Below are positions 1 through 46,475 of a stretch of DNA of 64,000 nt, one piece after another. The notes under the pieces were generated by a model. The model had not been told where the DNA came from. It ran no database searches and worked only from the letters and a program-made list of their open reading frames with translations. The DNA lies in NCBI GenBank assembly GCA_001600455.1, contig BCKC01000007.1, positions 108,161-172,160 of the forward strand, read 5' to 3'. The DNA is from Endocalyx cinctus (lineage: Eukaryota; Ascomycota; Sordariomycetes; Amphisphaeriales; Apiosporaceae). The position numbers were made by a program, and so were the translations under genes. Position 1 is the stretch's first letter, and every line of letters begins with the position of its first letter.

Positions 1-1397
1 GAGAACCGTGGCTTCCTGGTAGGCTTAAAAGGAGTCTTGTACGTGTTTCCCATTATTTAATGTTTCGCGTGTAAGTAACTGATCATCGACCTAGGAATAC
101 GCTGGGATTCTTCGCTGCGGGCTGGATCGGATATGCTGGAAGCTTTGCCCAAGGTGATTTACAATGGAGAATCCCCCTAGCCACCCAGGGGCCTCCAGCT
201 CTTCTTCTCGCCATCCTCACGTTTTTCCTTCCGTACTCACCTCGCTGGTGTAAGTGTTACTCCCATATACTTTTTTCTGTTCTCCATTTCCATAATGATA
301 CGATATCATGTGATCATATACCAAACTTTATGGGTAATGGATAGTATGCTGACTTAGTGGGGGTATGGTGCCGTAGTGATACGAAAAGAACGATACGACG
401 AGGCCAAGAAGGTCATGTACTACTTACACGAACACCGTGGAGGGGAATTCATCGAGGCAGAATATGGAGAAATGTACGCCCAGGTTCAACTAGAAGCATC
501 TCGAACAAAGAACTCCCCCAACAAGTATGCGACCCTCTTCACTAGAAGGTACATTCGCCGCACGCTTCTCGGCTGCCTCATAGGTTAGTACTCTCTGTCT
601 CCGTTATCGTTCACTTGATGCTCGATTTTATACCCTATCATGAAATATTGTCTCATAAGAATGAAATTTTGCTAACACTGGCTATAGTGAACATGACAAA
701 GCTATCGGGGTCAAACGTCATCCAAAACTACCAGAGTCTCTCGTATGCGGCTTTGGGTTACAAAGGGCAAACCGTTCTGCTCATTTCTGCCTTGTACGGC
801 TTCATGGCAGTCATCGCCCAAATAATAAGTATTTTCACTATTGTCGACCACTGGCCACGTAGGAAGACCATTATCTGGGGTTACATAGGTCTCGCAACAA
901 GTCTCATCATCAGCACCGGTCTTTCTGCTGCCTTTCCTGACGGCCATAACCAGAACGGCTCTCGAGCAGGAGTGGCTTTCATCTTTATCTTTGCATTCAC
1001 TTATTCTTTCTTCTTCAACTCGATCGTCTGGGTCGTGGTATCGGAGATCTTCCCGCTCGAGTTGCGTGGCGCGGGCGTAGGTTTTTCTGTCTTCTCACAA
1101 GGGATCACGGCTATCTGGCTTTCTTTCGCAGCCTCTATCGCCTTCGATGCTATCACTTGGAAGTTTTACTTCGTCTTCATTGGTTGCAACATCTTCGCAG
1201 GCGTATGCTTCTACATTTGGCTCCCCGAGACCAACCAGCTTAGTTTGGAGGAGATCGCGGCCAAATTCGGAGATCCCATCGCAGAACCCACAGCTAAGAT
1301 GCTAGAAGAGAAGGGGGAGAAGGGAGATATAGTCGAGGTGGTCCATGATGATGAGAAGTCTCGTGGCTCATCCCCGTCCCACATAGAGCGAGTATAA
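1..1397 (+). CDS. MFS sugar porter (hexose-type transporter), 5' end outside window
   Basis: Plasma-membrane sugar transporter of the major facilitator superfamily. The visible part is about 369 residues, the C-terminal two thirds of a protein that is usually 500-550 aa. Exons read from GT-AG signals: <1-38, 95-249, 377-583, 688-1397. Introns 39-94, 250-376 and 584-687 all keep the frame, with branch-like CTGAT, CTGAC and CTAAC. The spliced frame shows the family marks: YSPRWLI after TM6, DHWPRRK (a D-R-x-GRR-like loop), VSEIFPLELRG, and PETNQLSLEEI after TM12. The first exon is truncated by the window, so the start and TM1-4 are not visible. It stands 1.2 kb upstream of a second transporter in the same direction and at the edge of a sugar-acid cluster. 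The substrate cannot be told from sequence. Confidence 0.9.
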
Positions 1398-2615: not shown

Positions 2616-4294
2616 ATGGCGGACGTTGAACGTAACACAGGAACACTAAAAGATCCTGAAAAGATGGACAATCTTTCCGAACAGGTCGAGAACGTCAAGG
2701 TGGACAACGTGGAACATGTTGGCGCACTCTCGATGCCAGCAAGTCTTGCAGCACTCAACGAAGCTGAATATAATAGCCTGGGTCGCAAGGCAACCTTGAA
2801 GATGGACATGATCATTATGCCAATCATAACTATCATGTATATCTTGAACTATCTCGATCGCCAGAATATTGCTTCCGCCAAATTAGCCAATCTTGATCAG
2901 GATCTAGGCCTTAGCACGGTTCAATACCAAACCGCCGTCAGGTAAGGGACTTCGTAAGCCGAATAACTGAGGAAAGGAAGAAATTCGACTGACTTCTATT
3001 GTCGCAGTATCCTTTTCGTCGGCTACATCACTGCCCAAGTCCCGAGTAACATGATTGTCGGAAAAATAACCAAGCCCGGAGTCTACATCTGTGGCGGTAT
3101 GGCCGCTTGGGGCGTCATTTCAGCCCTTATGTCCGTCGTCCACAGCTTTGCTGGCTTGTTGTCCGCGCGGATCTTCCTAGGTGTGGTCGAGGCTATATTT
3201 TTCCCCGGTGCTATATACTTCCTTAGCTTGTTTTATAACCGAAAGCAAATGGCTTTACGCACTGCCATCTTATATTCCGGATCTCAGCTCGGTAATGCGT
3301 TCGGCGGTTTATTCGCCATCGGCGTCCTGCAACTCGACGGACGCTATGGACTAGATGGATGGCGATGGGTATGTCACTCACTATACTCCTTTAACCCCCT
3401 CCTATCCACCCATGTTATCATATTGTACTGGTACCGGTATCCGCTAACATAATTTTCTCGTAGCTGTTCCTTGTCGAAGGTGTTCTCACCACCGGTCTCG
3501 CCATCACCTTTGCCTTCATTCTGCCCAATTCCAACAAGAAAATCATAGGATTGTCTGAGATCGAATGCGAATATGTACAGTGGAATTTCATCAAGGATCA
3601 GGGTCAACAGGACAATTCCAACGAGATCAGTGCCCTCAAGGGCCTCACAATGGCTGTCCAGGACCCCAAGACGTGGTTACTTATGGGTATTCTATATGCA
3701 ACGTACATTGTAGGTGCGGTTGTCAACTTCTTCCCATCCGTTGTCGGCGGACTCGGCTACGATCGTAATACCACCTACCTCCTTACCGCTCCTCCATTCA
3801 TCCTATGCGTAGTATGCATGCTGGTTAACGGATGGCACTCGGACAAGAAGCAAGAGCGCTTTCTCCATATTGTCGTCCCCTTGCTGATTACTCTCGCTGC
3901 CAACGTCATCGCCGTCTCTTCTCTCAATATCGCGGCTCGATATATTGCCATGCTTCTACTACCTGGATCCTTCTACGCATCCGCCGTAGTTACCCTATCC
4001 TGGATCACTGGCAGCTTGTCTCAGCCCGCAGCCAAGAGGGCTTCTGCAATCGCTTTTATCAATGCTATTTGCAATACACCTAATATCTGGGGAAGCTACA
4101 TATATATCGGGGCTCCTCGATATATACTCGCGTTTATTATCAACATTGGCGCTACTGGGCTGGCTATTGGGTTTGCCCTTCTCACGGTTATGTATTTGAA
4201 GCGCCAGAATGCCAAGATCGCACGTGGGCAGCCAACCGGAAAGAACGGCCCTACCCCTTCGCAGGTCGCTGCAGGATTCAAGTATACCCTTTAG
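2616..4294 (+). CDS. MFS transporter, ACS (anion:cation symporter) family, allantoate/nicotinate-permease-like
   Basis: Predicted 505-aa plasma-membrane carrier for an organic anion. Exons 2616-2941, 3008-3368 and 3464-4294; introns 2942-3007 (66 bp) and 3369-3463 (95 bp, CTAAC branch). About 70 hydrophilic residues precede TM1. The ACS hallmark is clear: MYILNYLDRQNIASAKL at the end of TM1, then ITAQVPSNM in TM2, and RIFLGVVEAIFFPG and YNRKQMALR in the N half. The family includes fungal Dal5, Tna1 and similar permeases, and bacterial hexonate carriers such as DgoT. The start ATG has a purine context (ACCATGG). Because a DgoD-like dehydratase lies 13 kb away in the same cluster, a sugar-acid substrate is a reasonable inference. 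Nicotinate, allantoate or tartrate are alternatives. Confidence 0.92.
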
Positions 4295-9356: not shown

Positions 9357-11340
9357 TTACTGTCCTGCAAGTCCCTGCAGGAATTTCAACAATCCGTACG
9401 CACCTGGATCAGGGCAGTTCTTCCATTCCTCACCTCCCACGTAAACCGAACGACCTAAGCTCGCCTCCATACCTTTCGTGCTTTCGCATCCTTTCTGGGC
9501 TGCCTCGACAGCTTTAGTTAGACTTCCAGAAGACTTAAACTCTTCAATAAAAGGTTGCAAGGTATCTACGACGGTACGGTCACCGGGCTTGGCGGGTGTG
9601 TATCTTCCCAACGTCTTCAACGCACCAACCAAGGCGGTTCCCCAAACGGCCGTGGTGGCCGGGGAGGATTGCTTCGAGTCTTGTTCGCGAAGCGCGTGGG
9701 CGATCGCGTTTATGAAGATGGCGTATAAGGCTCCAGATGTGCCGTCCATACTCTTCTCTACGACATGCGCGATGCTGGTGACCAGCTGAACCGCGTCGTT
9801 TGAAGAGGACGCCAGGATGTGAGATAGAACAGCTTCGGCTCCAGTCTTGAGACATAATCCACAGTCGCCATCTCCGACAAGAGTGTCATATTTGGTCACT
9901 TCGGGCTCGGCATCAATCATGTTCTTCAGTGCTTTGCTGAGCACTTGTTGAACTTGGGCAGGATCGACTAGAATGGGAATTAGTAAGAGCTAACTGACAA
10001 GCGGAGGAAAAGAAATTGCCCAATCTGTTGACTTACCTTGGAGATTGCTTCGCACCTCTTGCTCGCCTAATTGAGCGCTATCCGTGGTGATAGCGCCCTT
10101 AGTCTGCCTAGCCCAGTTTTGGGCTGGCGCAGCCGGTAGCCATCCACTTGCGGCGGCCGGCGCATCCAAAAGTTCGACAAATCTGTTATCAGCCACTTTC
10201 AATAAAGTAGCACTGAATCCGATTCCATTCAAACTGGACATGTAAGTGCCGCAGAGTACCCGAACCGGCGCGATGCCGTATGCCTCGGATAGCTGATTGA
10301 TCAGCTCCATAGTAACGGCGCCTAGCTCTAAATTACTAAGGGCACCAAGGTTGTTCACCATTAGTATAACCGGCTCGCCACTCTTGATGCTGATGAATCC
10401 TCTGTCGCTGTCCGTAGTATCGAGAAGTTGCTTCAACAGACTCTGTATCAGACCAGGGAGGTTCGTCTTAACGCGACCAAATCCTTCTTCATTATGGATA
10501 CCCATGCCAATCTCGATCTCGTCGTTGCCATCCAGTTCGTCTGTTGAGACAGCTCGACCAGGTACATGAACGTGCGCCAACGACGCGCCGACAGTGGCAA
10601 CATTCTCGGAAGCGAGAGACGCGAGCTTGGTGACTTCTTCAAGAGAAGCGCTGCAATCCAGTCGTTAGTTCCCAAATTAACCCCCACGTTAAACATTATT
10701 GTAAAAAAAAAAAAAAACGCTTACCCCTTAGCAGCCAGAGCACCCGCAAGCTTTTGCACCAATACCGTTCCCGCCAGACCTCTGCGTCCGATCCTACCAC
10801 TCCTGGACCTGCCCACACCGACGTCGTCACCAACGACTAGCAATTCTGCCTTCAATCCCTGAGCTCTTGCCTTCTCAAGCGCCATACCGAAATGGAGCTT
10901 ATCACCCGTATAGTTCATAATAATGACCAATATGCCCCTCTGCGGCTGGGCAGCGCCGAGACGCATGATACAATTGTAGACCTGGTCGGCGCTAGGAGAG
11001 GCGAAAATGGAACCGGCGACGGCGGCGGAGAGGAAGCCCTCGCCTACGAAACCGGCGAAAGACGGTTCGTGGCCAGAGCCTCCTCCAGATATGACGGCAA
11101 CGTTAGAGGCGGATAAAGCATCTTGGAAGAATACGGTCTTGTTGGATAAATCGAAGGTGACGAGGGGGTTGGTCACGGTCAGGGAGCTCAGGGCGGCATG
11201 GACCAGAGCCAAAGGGTCGTCGCTAAGATGTTTTGCTATATAGAAGTTACCGTGAGCACTTGATACAGCGAGGATAAGATCGTGTTACATGATAGAACGG
11301 GAGGGAGAGACAGTATAATGATGGAGGGCTTACAAGACAT
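9357..11340 (-). CDS. Dihydroxyacetone/glyceraldehyde kinase (DhaK-DhaL fusion)
   Basis: ATP-dependent triose kinase, 580 aa, typical of eukaryotic DAK. Exons in transcript order: 11340-11334, 11235-10725, 10650-10037, 9967-9357; introns of 98, 74 and 69 bp. The first exon is only 7 nt (ATGTCTT). Splicing it to the acceptor at 11236 gives MSSKHLSDDP, the canonical DAK N-terminus. The DhaK part shows GGGSGHEPS and the substrate-binding His225 in GMGIHNEEG. The DhaL part shows VGDGDCG (Mg-ATP aspartates) and SMDGTSGALY. It phosphorylates dihydroxyacetone and often D-glyceraldehyde, so it would close the route from the aldolase to glycolysis. It shares a 2-kb divergent promoter with the KduD-like SDR. 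A CGTGGGG element lies inside its second intron. Confidence 0.94.
10682..10688 (-). promoter_or_regulatory. CGTGGGG element inside kinase intron
   Basis: CCCCACG on the plus strand, within intron 2 (10724-10651) of the DAK gene. Same heptamer as in the cluster's promoters. Confidence 0.35.
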
Positions 11341-28477: not shown

Positions 28478-29866
28478 TCATAACTCATCTTTCTTTTCAT
28501 CCGAGCTTGATATGGGTGAATCTGGCCTCCCGCTATCCTTATGCAGATCTACGCCATTCTTACCCCTCCATTTCTGCCATACCGACCAGAATTCTTTCTC
28601 CATCCCCGATTCCATCTGATCTGGTAGTACAACGACGTATTCGACGTAGAGCTTTCCGTACTCGAACTCGTGATAAACAGAGTCCCCGTTGTCACTCCAA
28701 ATAGGCATACCCTCTCCTTCGACAGTATCCACGTGGCCAGGCTGAACGACGTCTCCTCGCTTACGACCTAATCTGACGACGTGGCCGTCGAGATGCGTAA
28801 CGTTACGAGTCCAATCACCCATCCAAGCTTCCCGCAGGGATAAGACTTCTCGCCAGAATAGGTCGTTCCCTTTTCTTCGGAAAAAGGTGCCATCGACATG
28901 ATCGGGATTTTCAACGTCGAGACCGGGCTCTCTCTCGGTCAAGATGACGATAAGATCACCGGCGATGTAGTCCGGGCTTGCATCAGCCTCGTTCTCGTAT
29001 ACGAGCCTGGCATCTCGCGCGATACCACGCTCGACCTTGAGCTGCACCGTGGTCGGCTTGCGGACAACCCTATTACCCTGACAGACTGGACACTTGTGCG
29101 GTATGGTCTTGCCTCGGCCGCCGCACTTGTCGCACTGAGTTTGAACCTGTTGAAACATGCCAGGAGCCAATTGATGCTTGATGATCCGTACACCGTGTCC
29201 ACCACAATGCTGGCAGGTATCGACGATGCCATCTTCCGATCCGGTGCCGTCGCACTCTTCACAGATTTGTTGCTTTTCCCATTGAAACTCGGTATCTCGG
29301 CCCTCGTAGAAATCTCGAAGCGAAATGGCAACCTTGATTTCTATATTATGTCCGCGGGGCTGACCACCTCGATAGTGACCACCACCGCCGAAGAAACGAC
29401 TGAAAAGATCGAAGGGATCGTGATGGTTCCCTCCACCACCTTGTTTGTGCTGTTGCAAGCCCTCATGTCCGTATTTGTCGTATATCTGTCTCGTCTGAGA
29501 GTCGATCAATGCCTCGTATGCTTCGGACACCTGAACAAACTTGGCCTGCGCCGTATCATCACCTCTGTATAAAAGTTAGTCCATAGGTAGTAAGAAACCA
29601 GTCGTCAACAGTCAACTCGAGATAAGGTGAACATACGGGTTCTTGTCAGGGTGGAATTTCTTGCTCAGCTGTCGATAGGCTGATTTGATCTGCTTGTCGT
29701 TTGCATTGCGATCTATTCCTAGAATCTACCAAAGTCGTAGTTAGTTTTGAATGTCGCATTGCTTATATCTCAAGAGCCTTGGTATTACCTTATAAAAGTC
29801 CTCCTGGCAAAGTATTATCTGTGCAAAGATACAAAAAAGTAAAAAGACTACGGCGCGAAATAACAT
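28478..29866 (-). CDS. ER-luminal DnaJ co-chaperone (Scj1/ERdj3 type) ending in KDEL
   Basis: Predicted 417-aa Hsp40 of the endoplasmic reticulum, partner of BiP/Kar2 in folding and ERAD. Exons in transcript order: 29866-29789, 29725-29637, 29564-28478; introns of 63 and 72 bp. Residues 1-20 form a signal peptide ([20 protein letters not shown]). The J domain begins QEDFYKILGID and carries HPD at 51-53. A Gly-rich linker ([10 protein letters not shown]) follows, then the four CxxCxGxG zinc repeats ([32 protein letters not shown]), the substrate-binding C-terminal domain, an NVT glycosylation sequon, and a terminal KDEL. Together these leave little doubt about location. It is divergent from Prp2 with 912 bp between ATGs. 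Confidence 0.96.
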
Positions 29867-30778: not shown

Positions 30779-33700
30779 ATGAGCGGCAAACGATATGCCT
30801 TCGTCCCGATGGACGATGACGAAGTAGGACCCCAAAAAGTCGAAAAGAAGTCGAAACATAGGTCCCATCGAGAAAAACGCAGTCCTAGACCCCATCGTGA
30901 GGATCGACGCGACCGACGCGATGGAAGAGATGGACGAGATGGACAAGGACAGAAGCATACATCAAAAGCGCGTAGAAGAGGTGGTCAAGGCGACTATGAA
31001 GATAGATGGGGCGACGAAGAACCCGAATCAGAGCCCGAACCGGAACCGGAACCGGAGCCCTCAGATTTTCGAGAATCAGCTCGTAAGCGGGTGAAACTTA
31101 GTAACGATGAGGAGCGCGAAGAGAGAAGCGAAAAGAAGCGCGAAGAGAAGCGAAATGACCAATCTGGTGATGATTCGGACACCGCGCGCGATATTGCCGA
31201 AAGAGATGCGTTCGCAAAACGGTTAAGAGAGCGGGAAAAGGGAAATTCTAAAGACCTCGACAGCAAATCGGAGAAGAAACGTCAACGATTAGTTGACGAC
31301 ATCGCCTCCAATCGAGTAGCCATGCCGGATCTGCGCGAGCGGTCAAGACAAGATTATTTGAAGAAGCGAGGGACGGAGAAACTTGTTTTACTTCGTAAAC
31401 AGGTTGCCAGGGAGACCGAAGAACTGAACAGTGGCGTCAAATTAACTAAGGACGAAAAGGAGGAGTTCGCAAAGAACAGGGAGCTCCTTCGACTCGCAGA
31501 AGAGCGAGAACGTATCGACGACCATAGAGACGGCTACTATATGCCCGAAGATTACATTACCGAAAAGGGAAAAATTGATAAGAAGCGCAAAGAAGAAGCC
31601 CTCTACAAGCGATATGTTGATAGAGACGAATACGGGCAAGAGAAGTTCGTCACGGAGCATGATGAATGGGAACGAGAACAAGCACAGAAGGCCAAAGCCC
31701 AAATAAATAGGGCCGAAAGAGAATTTGATGGAGAATATATGCCGGTGTTCGATCCGGAACAGTATATAAAATTCAATCTCGGTACAACTATGGCTGGCGA
31801 GGGCAAACAATTGTCTAAGGAGGAGAGGTTTTTGGAAGCGCAAATTGAAGCTGCCGAAAAGAAGGCTCTTTCTATTCAGGAGACCCGAAAAAGTCTTCCC
31901 ATCTACAAATATCGAGATGAGTTCATCGCCGCATTGGAACAATACCAAATTCTCGTCATTGTCGGTGAAACTGGAAGCGGTAAAACCACCCAACTTCCTC
32001 AATATCTGCACGAAGCAGGCTATACAAAAGATGGGCGCAAGGTTGGCTGTACACAGCCTCGACGAGTTGCAGCCATGAGTGTAGCGGCTCGTGTTGCGGA
32101 AGAAATGGGCGTCAAAGTCGGTAACGAAGTCGGTTATTCCATTCGTTTCGAGGATTCTACTAGTGACAAAACAATCTTGAAATACATGACAGATGGTATG
32201 TTACTCCGAGAGTTTATGACCGAACCTGATCTTGCTGGCTATTCGGCCCTGATGATCGACGAGGCCCACGAACGTACCGTCCACACGGATATTCTGTTGG
32301 CCTTGGTCAAGGATCTAGCAAGAGAAAGGCCAGATTTGAAGCTCCTCATTTCTTCTGCCACCATGAACGCCGAAAAGTTCGCCAAATATTTTGATGATGC
32401 ACCGATTTTCAATATTCCTGGACGAAGGTATCCTGTTGATATCTACTATACGCCAGCGCCAGAGGCAAATTATTTAACTGCCGCCATTACCACCGTGTTC
32501 CAGATCCATACAACGCAAGGGCAAGGGGATATCCTTGTATTCTTGACAGGTCAAGATGAAATCGAAGCCGCTGAACAGCAACTAACGGACACGGCGAGAA
32601 AGTTGGGTAATCGTGTCAAGGAACTGATTGTGTGTCCTATCTACGCCAACCTTCCCTCAGATCTTCAATCCAAGATCTTTGAACCGACTCCGGCGGGGGC
32701 TCGGAAAGTCGTGCTAGCCACGAATATCGCAGAAACCAGTCTGACCATCGACGGTATCACATACGTCATCGACCCGGGGTACGTAAAGGAGAATGTTTAT
32801 AATCCAGCAACAGGAATGTCAAATCTAGTTGTCGTACCTTGCTCGAGAGCTTCGGCGAACCAGCGAAGCGGACGTGCCGGACGTGTCGGTCCCGGGAAAT
32901 GTTTCAGACTTTTCACTCGGTTTGCGTTCATGAACGAGATGGACGAGCAGACGACGCCGGAGATTCAACGGACAAACCTCAATAGTATCATCCTCCTGCT
33001 CAAGTCTCTTGGTATCAATGATCTAATAAACTTTGATTTCATGGACCCGCCCCCGACGGAAACCCTCATCGGCGCGCTAAACCAACTCTTCGCGTTGCAA
33101 GCTCTCAATCATAACGGCGTGCTCACGAAAGTTGGGCGTCAGATGGCCGAGTTCCCAACAGAACCAATGCTCGCTAAAGCGGTGTTAGCAGCAGATAAGT
33201 TCAAATGCGTGGACGAGGTGCTCGCGATAGTGTCCATGCTCAGCGAAGCCTCGGCCCTCTTCTTCCGCCCCAAGGACAAGAAGATTCACGCCGACAGCGC
33301 GCGCAACCGGTTCACGGTCAAGGAAGGCGGCGACCACCTTACGCTGCTCAACATATGGAACCAGTGGGTGGAGAGCGACTTCTCGCCGGTCTGGGCGCGC
33401 GAGAACTTCCTGCAGCAGCGGTCGCTCACGCGAGCCCGCGACGTCCGGGACCAGCTCGCCAAGCTCTGCGAGCGCGTCGAGGTCGCCCCTTCGTCCTGCG
33501 GCTCCGCCAACGTCGAGCCCATCCTCAAGGCCCTGACGGCCGGCTTCTTCCCCAACGCCGCGCGGCTGGAGCGTTCGGGAAACAGCTACCGCACCCTGAA
33601 GAACAACACGACCGTTTACCTGCACCCGTCGTCCGTGCTCGCCAAGTCGCACCCGCCGGATAAGACGGTGGTGTATTACGAGCTGGTCCTGACCACTAAA

Positions 33701-33823
33701 GAATACATGCGCAGTTGCATGCCCATCAACCCGGCTTGGCTTAACGAGGTGGCGCCTCATTTCCACAAGAAGAAGGAGATTGCGGATTTGGAAGAGAAGA
33801 GGATGCCTAAGGCGAGAGGGTAG
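30779..33823 (+). CDS. PRP2: Pre-mRNA-splicing DEAH-box ATP-dependent RNA helicase Prp2
   Basis: Single-exon, 1014-aa spliceosomal helicase of the Prp2/DHX16/Cdc28 type, which remodels the activated spliceosome before the first transesterification. The first 380 residues are charged and Arg/Glu-rich. The core shows motif I GETGSGKTTQ (Lys402), Ia TQPRRVAAMSVAARVA, motif II DEAH at 494-497, motif III SAT at 526-528, FLTGQDEIE, motif V ATNIAETSLTIDGI and motif VI QRSGRAGRVGPG. The HA2/OB-fold region follows. The N-terminal half (RMPD-like MPDLRERSRQDYLKKR, and YMPEDYITEKGKIDKKRK) matches Prp2 rather than Prp16, Prp22 or Prp43. Codon usage shifts abruptly to G/C-ending codons after about 33190. 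Confidence 0.96.
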   Translation: MSGKRYAFVPMDDDEVGPQKVEKKSKHRSHREKRSPRPHREDRRDRRDGRDGRDGQGQKHTSKARRRGGQGDYEDRWGDEEPESEPEPEPEPEPSDFRESARKRVKLSNDEEREERSEKKREEKRNDQSGDDSDTARDIAERDAFAKRLREREKGNSKDLDSKSEKKRQRLVDDIASNRVAMPDLRERSRQDYLKKRGTEKLVLLRKQVARETEELNSGVKLTKDEKEEFAKNRELLRLAEERERIDDHRDGYYMPEDYITEKGKIDKKRKEEALYKRYVDRDEYGQEKFVTEHDEWEREQAQKAKAQINRAEREFDGEYMPVFDPEQYIKFNLGTTMAGEGKQLSKEERFLEAQIEAAEKKALSIQETRKSLPIYKYRDEFIAALEQYQILVIVGETGSGKTTQLPQYLHEAGYTKDGRKVGCTQPRRVAAMSVAARVAEEMGVKVGNEVGYSIRFEDSTSDKTILKYMTDGMLLREFMTEPDLAGYSALMIDEAHERTVHTDILLALVKDLARERPDLKLLISSATMNAEKFAKYFDDAPIFNIPGRRYPVDIYYTPAPEANYLTAAITTVFQIHTTQGQGDILVFLTGQDEIEAAEQQLTDTARKLGNRVKELIVCPIYANLPSDLQSKIFEPTPAGARKVVLATNIAETSLTIDGITYVIDPGYVKENVYNPATGMSNLVVVPCSRASANQRSGRAGRVGPGKCFRLFTRFAFMNEMDEQTTPEIQRTNLNSIILLLKSLGINDLINFDFMDPPPTETLIGALNQLFALQALNHNGVLTKVGRQMAEFPTEPMLAKAVLAADKFKCVDEVLAIVSMLSEASALFFRPKDKKIHADSARNRFTVKEGGDHLTLLNIWNQWVESDFSPVWARENFLQQRSLTRARDVRDQLAKLCERVEVAPSSCGSANVEPILKALTAGFFPNAARLERSGNSYRTLKNNTTVYLHPSSVLAKSHPPDKTVVYYELVLTTKEYMRSCMPINPAWLNEVAPHFHKKKEIADLEEKRMPKARG

Positions 33824-41487: not shown

Positions 41488-44400
41488 ATGAATATAGAGA
41501 TCATGGAGACGCAGCTCCCCTCCCGACTTCGTGTCACTAACTCCAATCCTTCCCTTAGATCTATTGGAAACCGCCCAGGATCGATCCGCTCTGCGGGATC
41601 TCAGACCGGATCATACCGACATGCTCTGCTGAAATCAGATTCTCCTAGTCGCCAGTCTGTCGATACAGAGTTACCGGTGCCACCCGTACTCACCGGGCCA
41701 AATGTCGAGCCTCTAGATAGCGAGGTAATATCTCACCAAATGTCGAAAAAATCACCGGTTCCTGCATTAAATTCTCCTTATTCTAAGCCTGGCATGGTCA
41801 CAAAGCCACAGGACCTCCCTGAAATACAAGACTCTCGACCATACAAGCCCGTATGTATTGATCCGAGCATGCATCCTCCTGGTACTCATGCGAGAATACA
41901 TCACCCTGGTTTAGTCTCGGGGGCCGATTTCTGTGACGCTGGGCTACCCGTCGAGCGTGACTCTCCTATCAGATCTCCTGAGAGTACCTCTTCGTCGTCT
42001 GGCCGTATGTTAACTGGGCGAACTTTTCGATTGCTGAGCAGTGGAGAGATATGTGAAGAACTTATTGATGTCTCTCAGCATGCCTCTAAAAATCGCAGTT
42101 CTATCGTCAAAGTCCGGCCCGCCCTCAATTTGATCACAAGCAATCATGATCATGGTGGGCATCATGGTATATCCAAGGTTCGTCCTGCTGATTTGGACAA
42201 GGTAATCATTCACCAGCGTGAGCCTTCGGTTCTCGAGCTTGCAGGTGTTGACGTCCCGTATTCCGTGGAGCGGCACTTTGCTCATGACCGCAATCGACTT
42301 TCCAAAGTACGTTCCTTCATTAACGACCTGTCGCGTCGAGACCCCGAGAAAGATCTCTCATCCCCCGCCATACGTGAGGGCCATGCTGAGGCTGAGAAAC
42401 CTCAACCTGATCATGAGGATTTAAACCCAACCCATACAACTGAGGATAATCCGATTTCCGCGGTCGCGGTAAAAGAGCCGGAACAGAGACCTGGTAGTCC
42501 ACCTCATCCGTTACCTGCCACGTCGTATTGGGGCTTCCTCCCGATATTCAGGCACAAGCAAGATGAACAGGTCGGTGGGATAGAAATCACAGAAGATTGC
42601 CACGCCGCGGCAAGTCATCAATCACCCAGAAGCTCTCTTTCTGGTCCTGTCCCGTCGCCGATACCCGGTGCGTGTTCTTCCACACTTGGGAATGCAGAAG
42701 TATCCCCTACCAATCAAGAGAACATACCTCACCAAAGCGACTCCAAACCCGACCATGAAGACGAATCTCGAATCAATCTATCCCAGGAATTGCCTGTAGG
42801 ACACCCTTTGGAATCAAGAGACAATATGGGAAAGGCCCCAGATCGTGTGATTGATCCATCACGCACGGCTTCCTGGCTTCGTCAGCTTCTTGGATATCCA
42901 GCCGAGCCTCAAAATCCGACTTTGACGAACTTGCCAGAGAAAACCCATGCTCGATCTCAAGTCTATGTTAATTTTCCTGACCGCACCAAAAGTCCACGGC
43001 CATCAAGGGTGCCAACATTCTCGGAGAATAATGAGATGGACGTTGAGGCAATGCACTCTACGATGCATAACCTCGAACAGCTACTTAACGAGGCATTGCG
43101 CCTTGCAAATCAAGCAGCCGACCAGGAAAACTGTCGGAACCTCGACGATGGTAGTTTACGTCCTCCTTCACGAATTTCCGAAGGCTCGGTTGAGTCATTT
43201 TATCCAACTAGTGACCACGAGAGTGATTATTACCCTTCTCAACAGGAAGCAAAGACATCAATTTATCCCTACCCAATCTTAGGGCCCGCAAAGACCGCCC
43301 ATCGCAAAAGAATTGCCAAGAAGCCAACTTTTGTGAGAGATGTCTCCGAAGACAGTGACAGACGACCTACCGACTTTGCCGATTACTCTTACAATGTCAA
43401 TTTGAAAGGAATCACCAAATCTCAGCAAGACAGGGGTGTCCCCAACAGTGAGGAAGTTCAGGAACATATCCGCAAGTTCAATCATCCCCCGATTGGACCA
43501 CGAAAAAGCTCGAAGAATCTTCGAAAGACTGCAGAAGGTCAAACCAATGCCTCGTCGTCAGGTCGAGCGAGGGGAACGATGGAAGTACGTCGTAGAGGAA
43601 AGGACGTACGCAGCTTGGACGGCGGTACATCCGACGATGATATCGACTTCTCAACACAATACAAGGCCGATAACAAGCACAGAGCTGGTCTATCACACAG
43701 CCATGGAAAATCAGCACATGGCAGCAAGCGAGTCCAGGCGCTACGCGACGTAAGCCTCCGAGGAATGTCACACATCAGTTTAGCCGAAGGTCAGAAATTC
43801 AATTTGGCTAGATCTGTCAAACGCCAACCTACTATCGCTCGAGACTGGTCCACTGCTCGGAAATGGTTTGTCGCTTCGGTGGCGTGTATCAGCACGGCTT
43901 TGATAGGAGTATTGGTGGGAATCTACGCCGGACTAGTTCCTTCGATACAATACTACCTTGCTGATTTCAGTCATTACGCTATTCTGGGTAATGTTGTCTT
44001 TTACCTCGGCATGGCGCTTTCCACATTTCTTTGTTGGCCTTTGCCTCTCTTGCACGGCCGCAAGCCTTACATTGTGGGCAGTCTATGCATCGCAATGCCT
44101 CTTCTCTTCCCCCAAGCAATCTCCATCAGTGTTCTACGATCCCCTTTAACTAGCACATGGAGATAGGCTCTCCTGTTCCCCAGGGGCTTGATGGGTTTCG
44201 CGTTAGGCTTCGCCAACATGAACTTCCACTCAACATTGACAGATTTATTTGGGGCATCTTTGATGAACACTCACCCTCACCAAGAACTGGTCGACTCATA
44301 CGATATGAGAAGACACGGTGGCGGGCTTGGCGCGTGGCTAGGGATATGGACTTGGTGCTACATCGGTTCCATCTCTGTCGGCTTTCTTGTCGGGGCTGTG

Positions 44401-46475
44401 ATCATCGACAGTCTGCAACCGTCTTGGGGATTCTATATCAGCATCATATGCATTGCAGTGGTACTTCTACTCAACGTTGTTTGCCCAGAGGTTCGCCGTT
44501 CGGGATGGAGACGGTCTGTCGCGGAAGTCAGAACTGGGGAAACGGTATCCCATCGGGTAGCTCGTGGAGAAATCAAGATGCATCGAGTTCAAGATGGCCC
44601 AAAATGGTGGGGACAAGAGTTGTATCACGGAATGGCGTTATCTATGGAGATGCTACATCAGCCGGGTTTCTTGGTCATGGCTGTCTACTGTGCTTGGGTC
44701 TACGCCGAGGTTGTACTGATTATCGTGGTAAGAGTTGCCATTGTTCAAACATTGTATTGGAAACTGCTAATAAATTCTAGCTTTTGGGATCATTGACCTC
44801 GAAGTACTACCGGTTTCGACCTACCTACGTTGGCGCTTGCGTGTCATCCGTAGCCATCGGTGCACTTGCGGCCATTCCATTTCAAAAGGCAAACATTTTC
44901 TCGAGGGCCAGAAACATGGGCCCACAAACCAACTTGATGACCCTCAATGAAAAGCGAATGTCTTGGTCGTCCCATTTACTACGTCGTGCTATATTTATCA
45001 TATGCTTACCCATCGCTGGAATACTATACGCCGTCGTTTCAATGGGCTCCGTCGTCCACGTCGTTTTCCCGTGTTTGTTCGCTGGGGCAATGGGGTTTTT
45101 ATCTTGCCTTGCAATTTCGGAATGTAACGGACTCATGATGGAAACTTGGGATTGCTCCGATCTGCAGCCAGGTATGACGGGTCACCCAGGCTCCCACGGA
45201 GACCAGAAGAAACGCACCAACTATTCGTCGTTCCCTCGAGTCACGGCGGGGTGGAACACAATCCATACCATTGGTTTTATCTTTGCGGCTGGATCCACCG
45301 GTATAGGTGGCCTGGCCACTCGTCGTCTTGGACAGAGAGCCGCGACGGGTGTGACGGCAGGTATTCTCTTGCTGCTGTCTGTCTTGCTTCTCGGAGTTCT
45401 GCTACGGTGGAAAGACGCGCAGATTATTCCAGACTGCAAGTGCTCGGAGATGGATAAATGGCGAACTGAGCGTCGAAGCAGCGCTCACCAGTTCGCCTCC
45501 GCAGTCGCGGAAGCTAAGGCTTCTGGTAGAAAAGATATGCCCAACCCGCACGAACACGAGGTTGGCTAGCGGCCAGTCGTTATCGGCAACCCATCCGAGA
45601 AGGTTCGCCACATGAGTATTCTCGAGATGGGTTCCATGACTCGGTGGACGGAGATTCGCAAGAAGAACCGATTAATTGACGATTACGCTTGCTTGGATCA
45701 CCAAGTGGTGAGATTAACCCGGGACGAGATTGAACGCCGAGGAAATGAATTCCTCGACGAAATTCATCATTCGACCGAGAAACTGGGAGACGTCGTCCAT
45801 AAACTCAGCAAGCAGAGCCTGGGAAGCAAGCATGGTAGTGACAATATGAATCCAGATGGAAAAGGGGATGTATCTAGCGCCAAAATAGCAAAAGCCAAAG
45901 GATCTGGAGCTCATCGTCATCATCCAACGCAGTCTGGTGTTCATTCTGACGGCGAACGTGCCAGAGGTCAAACGGCGAGGGAAGAGCCCGACGAAACGAT
46001 GTCATCAATGGATGGTGGATCGGATGACGATTATGGCCATATCCGCCAACCTGTCGACCGCCACCACGAATCTCACGCAATTTTCGGGAACTCGTCGCGA
46101 TACGCTGAAGGTGACGAGACGAATGCAGGACCATACAACGCTATTAACAAGGGGAAAATGCCATACTCTGAGCATGATTCGCACAGAGCTCACGGCCACG
46201 CAAGTAAGGTCCGACAAGCCGATACGTACTACGAGCAAATGCGAAGGGAACACGCGGATCACGGACATCAGAACAAAGTTAGGGCGGCCGATACAGAGCT
46301 AGAGGAGCTGGAGCGAGCTCACGCCGAGCATGGCCACCAGAATAAAGTGAGACCGTTCCTGACAAACCAGGAGATTCTACAGAGAGATCACGCAGAACAT
46401 GGGCACCAAGCCAAAGTCAAGCCAGCTGACTTGGACTTTGTTGACGTCAATCTGGATGATGGAGATGCAAAATGA
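41488..46475 (+). CDS. MFS transporter with long disordered tails and two in-frame TAG codons (candidate RNA-edited gene)
   Basis: Exons 41488-44727 and 44781-46475; the 53-bp intron has GTAAGA donor and TCTAG acceptor. Read through both TAGs the product is 1644 aa. Residues 1-790 are disordered. The MFS domain starts near 792 (KWFVASVACISTALIGVLVG), with HGRKPY in the TM2-3 loop. The first TAG is codon 893, within the segment STWR-TAG-ALLFPRGLMGFALGF, so an unedited product would end after about three helices. The second is codon 1343, in HEVG-TAG-RPVVIGNPSEKV, after the last helix. The frame is intact on both sides of each. HG-x-KVR repeats occur both before the first stop (about residues 218-275) and after the second (about 1546-1630). 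TGG is the likely ancestral codon at each place. Explanations: A-to-I editing of UAG to UGG, readthrough, recent pseudogenisation, or sequence error. DHA1/polyamine-transporter-like; substrate unknown. Confidence 0.85.
44159..44173 (+). promoter_or_regulatory. Hairpin presenting in-frame TAG no. 1
   Basis: GGAGA (44159-44163) pairs perfectly with TCTCC (44169-44173). The 5-nt loop TAGGC starts with the stop codon at 44164-44166. Confidence 0.6.
45562..45576 (+). promoter_or_regulatory. Hairpin presenting in-frame TAG no. 2
   Basis: TTGGC (45562-45566) pairs with GCCAG (45572-45576), four Watson-Crick pairs and a terminal U-G. The loop TAGCG starts with the stop codon at 45567-45569. Confidence 0.6.

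What the first reader, a model, noticed from the sequence alone, without database searches (positions are those of the whole stretch)
41488..46475. One intact 1644-codon reading frame broken only by two in-frame TAG codons
Across about 4.9 kb of coding sequence the frame is open except for TAG at 44164-44166 and 45567-45569. Both would be TGG (Trp) after a single A-to-G change, and no frameshift accompanies them. A decaying gene would be expected to carry mixed stops and indels. In Fusarium graminearum and Neurospora crassa, sexual-stage A-to-I mRNA editing is known to turn premature UAG into UGG, for example in the PUK1 kinase gene. This gene has the same look. If so, the full transporter would be made only in fruiting tissue, with truncated forms otherwise.
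Basis: partly seen in the sequence, partly recalled or inferred. Interest (0 to 1): 0.9.

Follow-up and report, generated by a model that had tools for sequence, protein, structure and literature searches.

The report
AMD1-like fungal gene with two stops
A fungal membrane-transporter gene carries two stop signals inside an otherwise intact reading frame, and it most likely belongs to a known class of genes whose messages are corrected by RNA editing in fruiting bodies; a known gene for spore shooting (AMD1) is the probable relative.

Summary
Confirmed: from 41488 to 46475 one frame of 1644 codons with one 53-base intron is broken only by TAG at codons 893 and 1343. Alone this is weak: any TAG is one step from TGG, and two random nonsense changes here would both be TAG about 15% of the time. 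Support comes from elsewhere. The gene has the plan of AMD1 of Fusarium graminearum, a published case of sexual-stage UAG editing (PMC5496914). The same genome holds a PUK1-like kinase with TAG then TGG, the arrangement edited in Neurospora crassa (PMC4817773), plus a second TAG; both align to Trp in solved kinases. A decayed kinase copy there has mixed stops. Hairpin evidence is mixed. No RNA, reads or orthologue could be reached, so orthology, editing and the residue at both codons are inferred. The F. graminearum stop is at codon 211; here none precedes codon 893. Most likely a new member of a known kind.

The parts
41488..44163 (+). First open piece: 892 codons, polar Ser/Pro/His-rich N-terminus, then three predicted membrane helices (codons 794-812, 831-849, 862-880)
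   Evidence: no Pfam family in this piece alone
44164..44166 (+). In-frame TAG number 1, codon 893, after predicted helix 3
   Evidence: loop of a local 5-bp stem, A second of five loop bases
44167..44727 (+). Second open piece, 187 codons, rest of the first MFS half
   Evidence: PF07690 E=0.00096 alone, E=6e-5 over codons 800-1000 with X at the stop; both under the curated cut-off of 33.4 bits; no match in solved structures
44728..44780 (+). Intron, 53 bases, GTAAGA...TTCTAG
   Evidence: sequence signals and frame; no transcript evidence
44781..45566 (+). Third open piece, 262 codons, last predicted membrane helices
   Evidence: one place in the genome
45567..45569 (+). In-frame TAG number 2, codon 1343, in the tail after the last predicted helix (ends at 1288)
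   Evidence: can be the loop of a local 7-bp stem with five loop bases or an 8-bp stem with three, but is not in a hairpin loop when 30 bases either side are folded
45570..46472 (+). Fourth open piece, 301 codons, charged tail with four histidine-rich repeats
   Evidence: best codon score of six frames
46473..46475 (+). Terminal stop TGA

Best explanation
This is most likely the AMD1 orthologue of a Sordariomycete-like fungus: an MFS-type membrane protein with a long polar N-terminus and tail. Its two in-frame UAG codons are most likely turned into sense codons by A-to-I editing of the mRNA in fruiting bodies, so that the full protein is made in the maturing ascus. Shown here: the frame, the two TAGs, the 11-helix layout, one place in the genome for the pieces searched, and a PUK1-like kinase in the same genome with TAGs at two positions held by Trp in relatives. 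Inferred: orthology to AMD1, editing at these two sites, its stage, and a role in ascus wall integrity and ascospore discharge.
For: Frame intact over 4.9 kb but for two TAGs. 11 hydropathy peaks and a weak MFS_1 match at codons 800-1000, against 11 helices and MFS at 618-840 in the 1386-aa F. graminearum Amd1 (PMC5496914 Results part 1). One place only for pieces 1 and 3. Kinase in L035: TAG at codons 490 and 630 counted from my chosen ATG. With X at both stops, both X stand opposite Trp in CBK1 (4lqp) and STK38 (6bxi) (the first site lies in strong stretches, the second in weak ones, E 0.0017 and 8.5). Chance that two random nonsense changes there both make TAG from a Trp codon: 0.0035, or about 0.001 to 0.008 for other transition ratios. 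TAG then TGG is the published, edited arrangement in N. crassa NCU03242 (PMC4817773). Of 139 kinase matches 23 have stops inside; of the 19 fetched, 17 have an intron or exon-edge reading by splice signals, one is this kinase, and one (L034) is a decayed copy with mixed stops and broken frames. Both window TAGs can be the loop of a local stem with A second of five loop bases; such scores are reached by 16 and by 5 of 5722 TAGs, the two sites included (loop type chosen after seeing it).
Against: No RNA reads, genome reads or orthologue were reachable, so the residue at codons 893 and 1343 is unproved. The MFS match is under Pfam's cut-off. With 30 bases either side, as in PMC4817773, TAG1 is in a hairpin loop in the best fold (P 0.47) but TAG2 is not (P 0.04), and neither kinase TAG is (P 0.00 and 0.32). 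With 40 bases either side TAG1 is mostly paired (P unpaired 0.29). With other loop sizes allowed the local stems are less striking (2.9% and 0.7% of TAGs). The F. graminearum AMD1 stop is at codon 211, where there is none here. Domains of other genes published as edited (SPO22, DNA methylase, RhoGAP) showed no lone TAG here; the Ras family was inconclusive.
Confidence: 0.75

Rival explanations
1. Young pseudogene: the gene has just begun to decay, for example because this lineage no longer uses its sexual cycle, and two nonsense changes have arisen.
For: Two random nonsense changes here would both be TAG about 15% of the time; no orthologue or selection test was possible.
Against: No frameshift and no TAA or TGA in 4.9 kb; the PUK1-like kinase of the same genome has TAGs at two positions held by Trp in relatives, one of them edited in N. 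crassa; a decayed kinase copy here looks quite different.
Confidence: 0.13
2. The stops are removed by splicing: alternative introns skip the two TAGs.
For: An in-frame 93-base stretch 44074-44166 with a weak donor GTGGGC, a branch-like TTAAC and TAG as acceptor covers TAG1.
Against: It would delete predicted helix 3. No in-frame intron with at least 4 of 6 donor matches and a donor within 160 bases upstream covers TAG2. PMC4817773 describes such introns, drawn to avoid the stops, as annotation errors, and PMC5496914 says so for AMD1.
Confidence: 0.04
3. Assembly or sequencing error at one or both codons.
For: Reads could not be checked.
Against: Two TAGs here and two in the kinase, one at the codon known from N. 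crassa, would all have to be wrong in the same way.
Confidence: 0.03
4. Stop codon readthrough on the ribosome, or shorter proteins made on purpose.
For: A product ending at TAG2 would hold all 11 predicted helices.
Against: The bases after the stops (GCT and CGG) do not look like the known strong readthrough context (recalled, no call).
Confidence: 0.05

Closest known systems
AMD1 (FGRRES_10094) of Fusarium graminearum, PMC5496914
   Same: MFS-type protein with long N-terminus, 11 helices and long tail; UAG inside the frame
   Different: 1386 aa with one edited stop at codon 211 there; 1644 codons with two TAGs at codons 893 and 1343 here, and none earlier.
PUK1 of F. graminearum and NCU03242 (stk-21) of Neurospora crassa, PMC4817773
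   Same: The genome of the window holds a PUK1-like kinase with TAG TGG as in N. crassa
   Different: That kinase has a further TAG at codon 630, opposite Trp of CBK1 and STK38, which the sections I read do not mention; it is a control, not the window gene.
The 69 PUK1-like stop-carrying genes of F. graminearum (PMC4817773)
   Same: In-frame UAG in a frame that is otherwise intact
   Different: Edited there by RNA-seq evidence; here inferred from DNA alone. AMD1 is one of them.

Membership tests
AMD1 orthologue | MFS domain | tested here: inconclusive
   PF07690 E=6e-5, 22.6 bits, under the cut-off 33.4, codons 800-1000
AMD1 orthologue | 11 transmembrane helices between long ends | tested here: met
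   11 hydropathy peaks at codons 794-1288 (simple Kyte-Doolittle scan with a cut-off of my choice) against 11 in the paper
AMD1 orthologue | Sequence orthology to FGRRES_10094 | not testable with these tools
   protein database off; no relative of piece 3 in viral or prokaryote contigs
AMD1 orthologue | Single gene (my own criterion) | tested here: met
   one place only for each of the two pieces searched
AMD1 orthologue | UAG at the F. graminearum position (codon 211) | tested here: not met
   no stop in the first 892 codons. Not a requirement of orthology: PUK1 stops also differ among species
AMD1 orthologue | Expressed late in fruiting bodies, protein in the ascus membrane | not testable with these tools
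   no RNA or protein data
Gene with stop corrected by sexual-stage A-to-I editing | In-frame UAG in an otherwise intact frame | tested here: met
Gene with stop corrected by sexual-stage A-to-I editing | A changed to G in fruiting-body RNA and not in hyphae | not testable with these tools
   no reads
Gene with stop corrected by sexual-stage A-to-I editing | Edited A preferably in a stable hairpin loop (62.4% of sites in F. graminearum) | tested here: inconclusive
   30-base flanks: TAG1 yes (P 0.47), TAG2 no (P 0.04); 15-base and 25-base flanks: both yes; 40-base flanks: neither in the best fold
Gene with stop corrected by sexual-stage A-to-I editing | Same kind of stop elsewhere in this genome: PUK1-like gene with UAG at the known codon | tested here: met
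   L035 kinase, TAG TGG at the CD-x-WSLG site (PMC4817773)

The most novel reading that the evidence does not exclude
The same spore-discharge gene has gained edited stop codons more than once in different fungal lineages and at different codons, so that the stops are themselves selected as a stage lock. In this species two locks sit in one gene: one cuts the transporter after three helices, the other removes only the histidine-rich tail, so that partial editing would yield a full transporter without its tail.
Probability: 0.3. Interest if true: 0.55.

Novelty: new member of a known kind. Interest (0 to 1): 0.37.

Why it matters
If the two sites are edited, AMD1 would be a gene in which the stop codons differ between lineages while the need for editing stays. 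That makes the open question of why fungi keep such stops (chance that became fixed, or a useful lock) testable by comparing species. It also warns that automatic gene prediction may cut or mis-splice such genes.

Tried and rejected
Intron across the stops: rejected for TAG2, unlikely for TAG1. Hairpins as proof: rejected (see report). Codon usage as proof: a first training set took the longest frame of each locus, which I judged spoiled by antisense frames, and was replaced; the result is modest.

Junctions of two open stretches of at least 120 codons in the 227,965 bases held: 14, of which 7 TAG, 5 TGA, 2 TAA. The TAGs are the two window TAGs, the two kinase TAGs, the window's own intron at 44778, one at 9992 with an intron-like cover, and L024, an intron end. 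The TGA and TAA cases were not checked for coding, so this shows no clean excess of TAG.

More edited-stop genes: SPO22 (1 match) and DNA methylase (3 matches) have no stop inside; of 13 RhoGAP matches 12 have none and one weak overlapping row has mixed stops and was not looked into. These see only the domain. Ras family: 12 of 61 matches have stops; I looked at two: a double TAG that reads as part of an intron (L047) and a TAG at an exon edge (L049); the other ten were not looked at. Kinases: 4 of the 23 matches with stops were not fetched, and the 17 intron or edge readings were judged from splice signals, for L023's edge TAG without looking further upstream and for L021 and L029 with weak donors.

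Species: myosin I matches chain 6ui4 (recalled as F. graminearum) without gaps over 659 residues but with many differences; Prp2 matches 6rm8 (recalled as Chaetomium thermophilum); a trypsin matches 1fn8 (recalled as Fusarium oxysporum). I take it for an ascomycete near the Sordariomycetes, probably not Fusarium; genus unknown.

Full report
The window is C7:108161-172160 of a 44.76 Mb genome in 15 contigs. From ATG 41488 it runs 892 codons to TAG 44164-44166, on through 187 codons, a 53-base intron (44728-44780) and 262 codons to TAG 45567-45569, and through 301 codons to TGA 46473-46475: 1644 codons in all, the two TAGs counted.

The stretches after each TAG behave like one gene. They are free of stops in this frame at odds of about 1.7e-4, 1.7e-5 and 5e-7. 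Codon usage supports this frame for the last two pieces, is level with an antisense frame for the 187-codon piece, and gives no support in the first 892 codons. A histidine-rich repeat found four times after the second TAG is also found before the first, including KVRPADLD against KVKPADLD (6 of 300 shuffles score as high, so the support is moderate).

The protein has a polar N-terminus of about 790 codons, 11 predicted membrane helices between codons 794 and 1288 and a charged tail. The only convincing family lead is MFS_1, weak and under the curated cut-off. Pieces 1 and 3 each occur once in the genome. This plan is that of Amd1 of F. graminearum: 1386 aa, MFS at 618-840, 11 helices, orthologues limited to ascocarp-forming ascomycetes and well conserved in Sordariomycetes (PMC5496914). 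AMD1 has one UAG at nucleotides 631-633, changed to UGG in 97.6% of transcripts in 8-day perithecia; the deletion mutant loses ascus wall integrity and spore discharge, and the protein is in the ascus membrane. I could not compare sequences, so orthology is inferred from layout (my estimate 0.75).

As a test inside the same genome I looked for PUK1, the best-known edited-stop gene. Of 139 protein-kinase matches, 23 have stops inside; I fetched 19 of them. Seventeen have an intron or exon-edge reading (signals only, no transcripts). One, L034, is a decayed copy with TGA, TAG and TAA and broken frames. One, L035, is an NDR-type kinase whose frame runs 489 codons from my chosen ATG to a TAG, 139 codons to a second TAG and 245 codons further. 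With X at both stops, the best solved relatives, CBK1 and STK38, have Trp at both places; the first site lies in a strong alignment, the second in short weak ones. The first TAG is followed by TGG; N. crassa NCU03242 has this same UAG-UGG pair, edited in perithecia (PMC4817773). Random nonsense would make two TAGs both from Trp codons in that kinase with probability about 0.0035. So this genome very probably uses stop-correcting editing, and its assembly keeps the A.

Structure around the sites is mixed. In F. graminearum 85.74% of edited A have U before them and 62.4% lie in hairpin loops, judged with 30 bases either side. TAG has the U by its nature. TAG1 can be the loop of a 5-bp stem and TAG2 of a 7-bp stem, both with the A second of five loop bases; TAG2 can also form an 8-bp stem with three loop bases. 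Such scores are reached by 16 and by 5 of 5722 TAGs in 227,965 bases, the two sites included, but I chose that loop type after seeing it; with other loop sizes allowed the figures are 2.9% and 0.7%. With 30-base flanks TAG1 is in a hairpin loop (P 0.47) and TAG2 is not (P 0.04), and neither kinase site is (P 0.00 and 0.32); of 1500 sampled TAGs 417 were in a hairpin loop in the best fold.

Mechanism. Most likely the mRNA is made in the maturing ascus, both UAG are deaminated by the editing activity of fruiting bodies, and the full transporter serves ascus wall integrity. Enzyme and stage are taken from the literature on relatives and not tested here. DUF726 genes occur at three places; I recall that an activator of this editing belongs to that family, but no call supports this. 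Unedited messages would give a protein with three helices, and messages edited only at TAG1 a protein with all 11 helices but without the last 301 codons. In F. [quoted passage not shown]

What is new is small but real: compared with the single stop at codon 211 in F. graminearum, this gene has none before codon 893 and two later ones. If orthology and editing hold, edited stops in this gene differ by lineage, as the PUK1 stops do among N. crassa, F. verticillioides and F. graminearum. I could not check whether later papers already report this (paper searches failed).

Noticed in passing
L035 (C9:1393500-1399500), minus strand, TAGs at C9:1396085-1396087 and 1395665-1395667: PUK1-like kinase with two in-frame TAGs at positions held by Trp in CBK1 and STK38; the second is not mentioned in the sections of PMC4817773 that I read.
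   Followed up: yes
L034 (C1:5301500-5307500), minus strand, near C1:5304207-5304527: Decayed kinase copy with mixed stops and broken frames; a useful contrast for what real decay looks like in this genome.
   Followed up: partly
L004, L005/L007, L006/L008 (C5:1948522, C3:3369208-3370273, C4:3080802-3081882): DUF726 genes at three places; recalled as the family of an activator of fungal A-to-I editing, not tested.
   Followed up: no
window 45570-46472: Tail with four histidine-rich repeats of about 23 residues (HAEHGHQNKVRPADLD-like), also present at codons 196-243; no Pfam family.
   Followed up: partly
window 615-1394 and 3551-4291, +: Two further MFS pieces (Sugar_tr and MFS_1) near the start of the window.
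   Followed up: no
window 28481-29530, - and 30779-33820, +: A DnaJ-type chaperone and a Prp2-type splicing helicase upstream of the gene.
   Followed up: no
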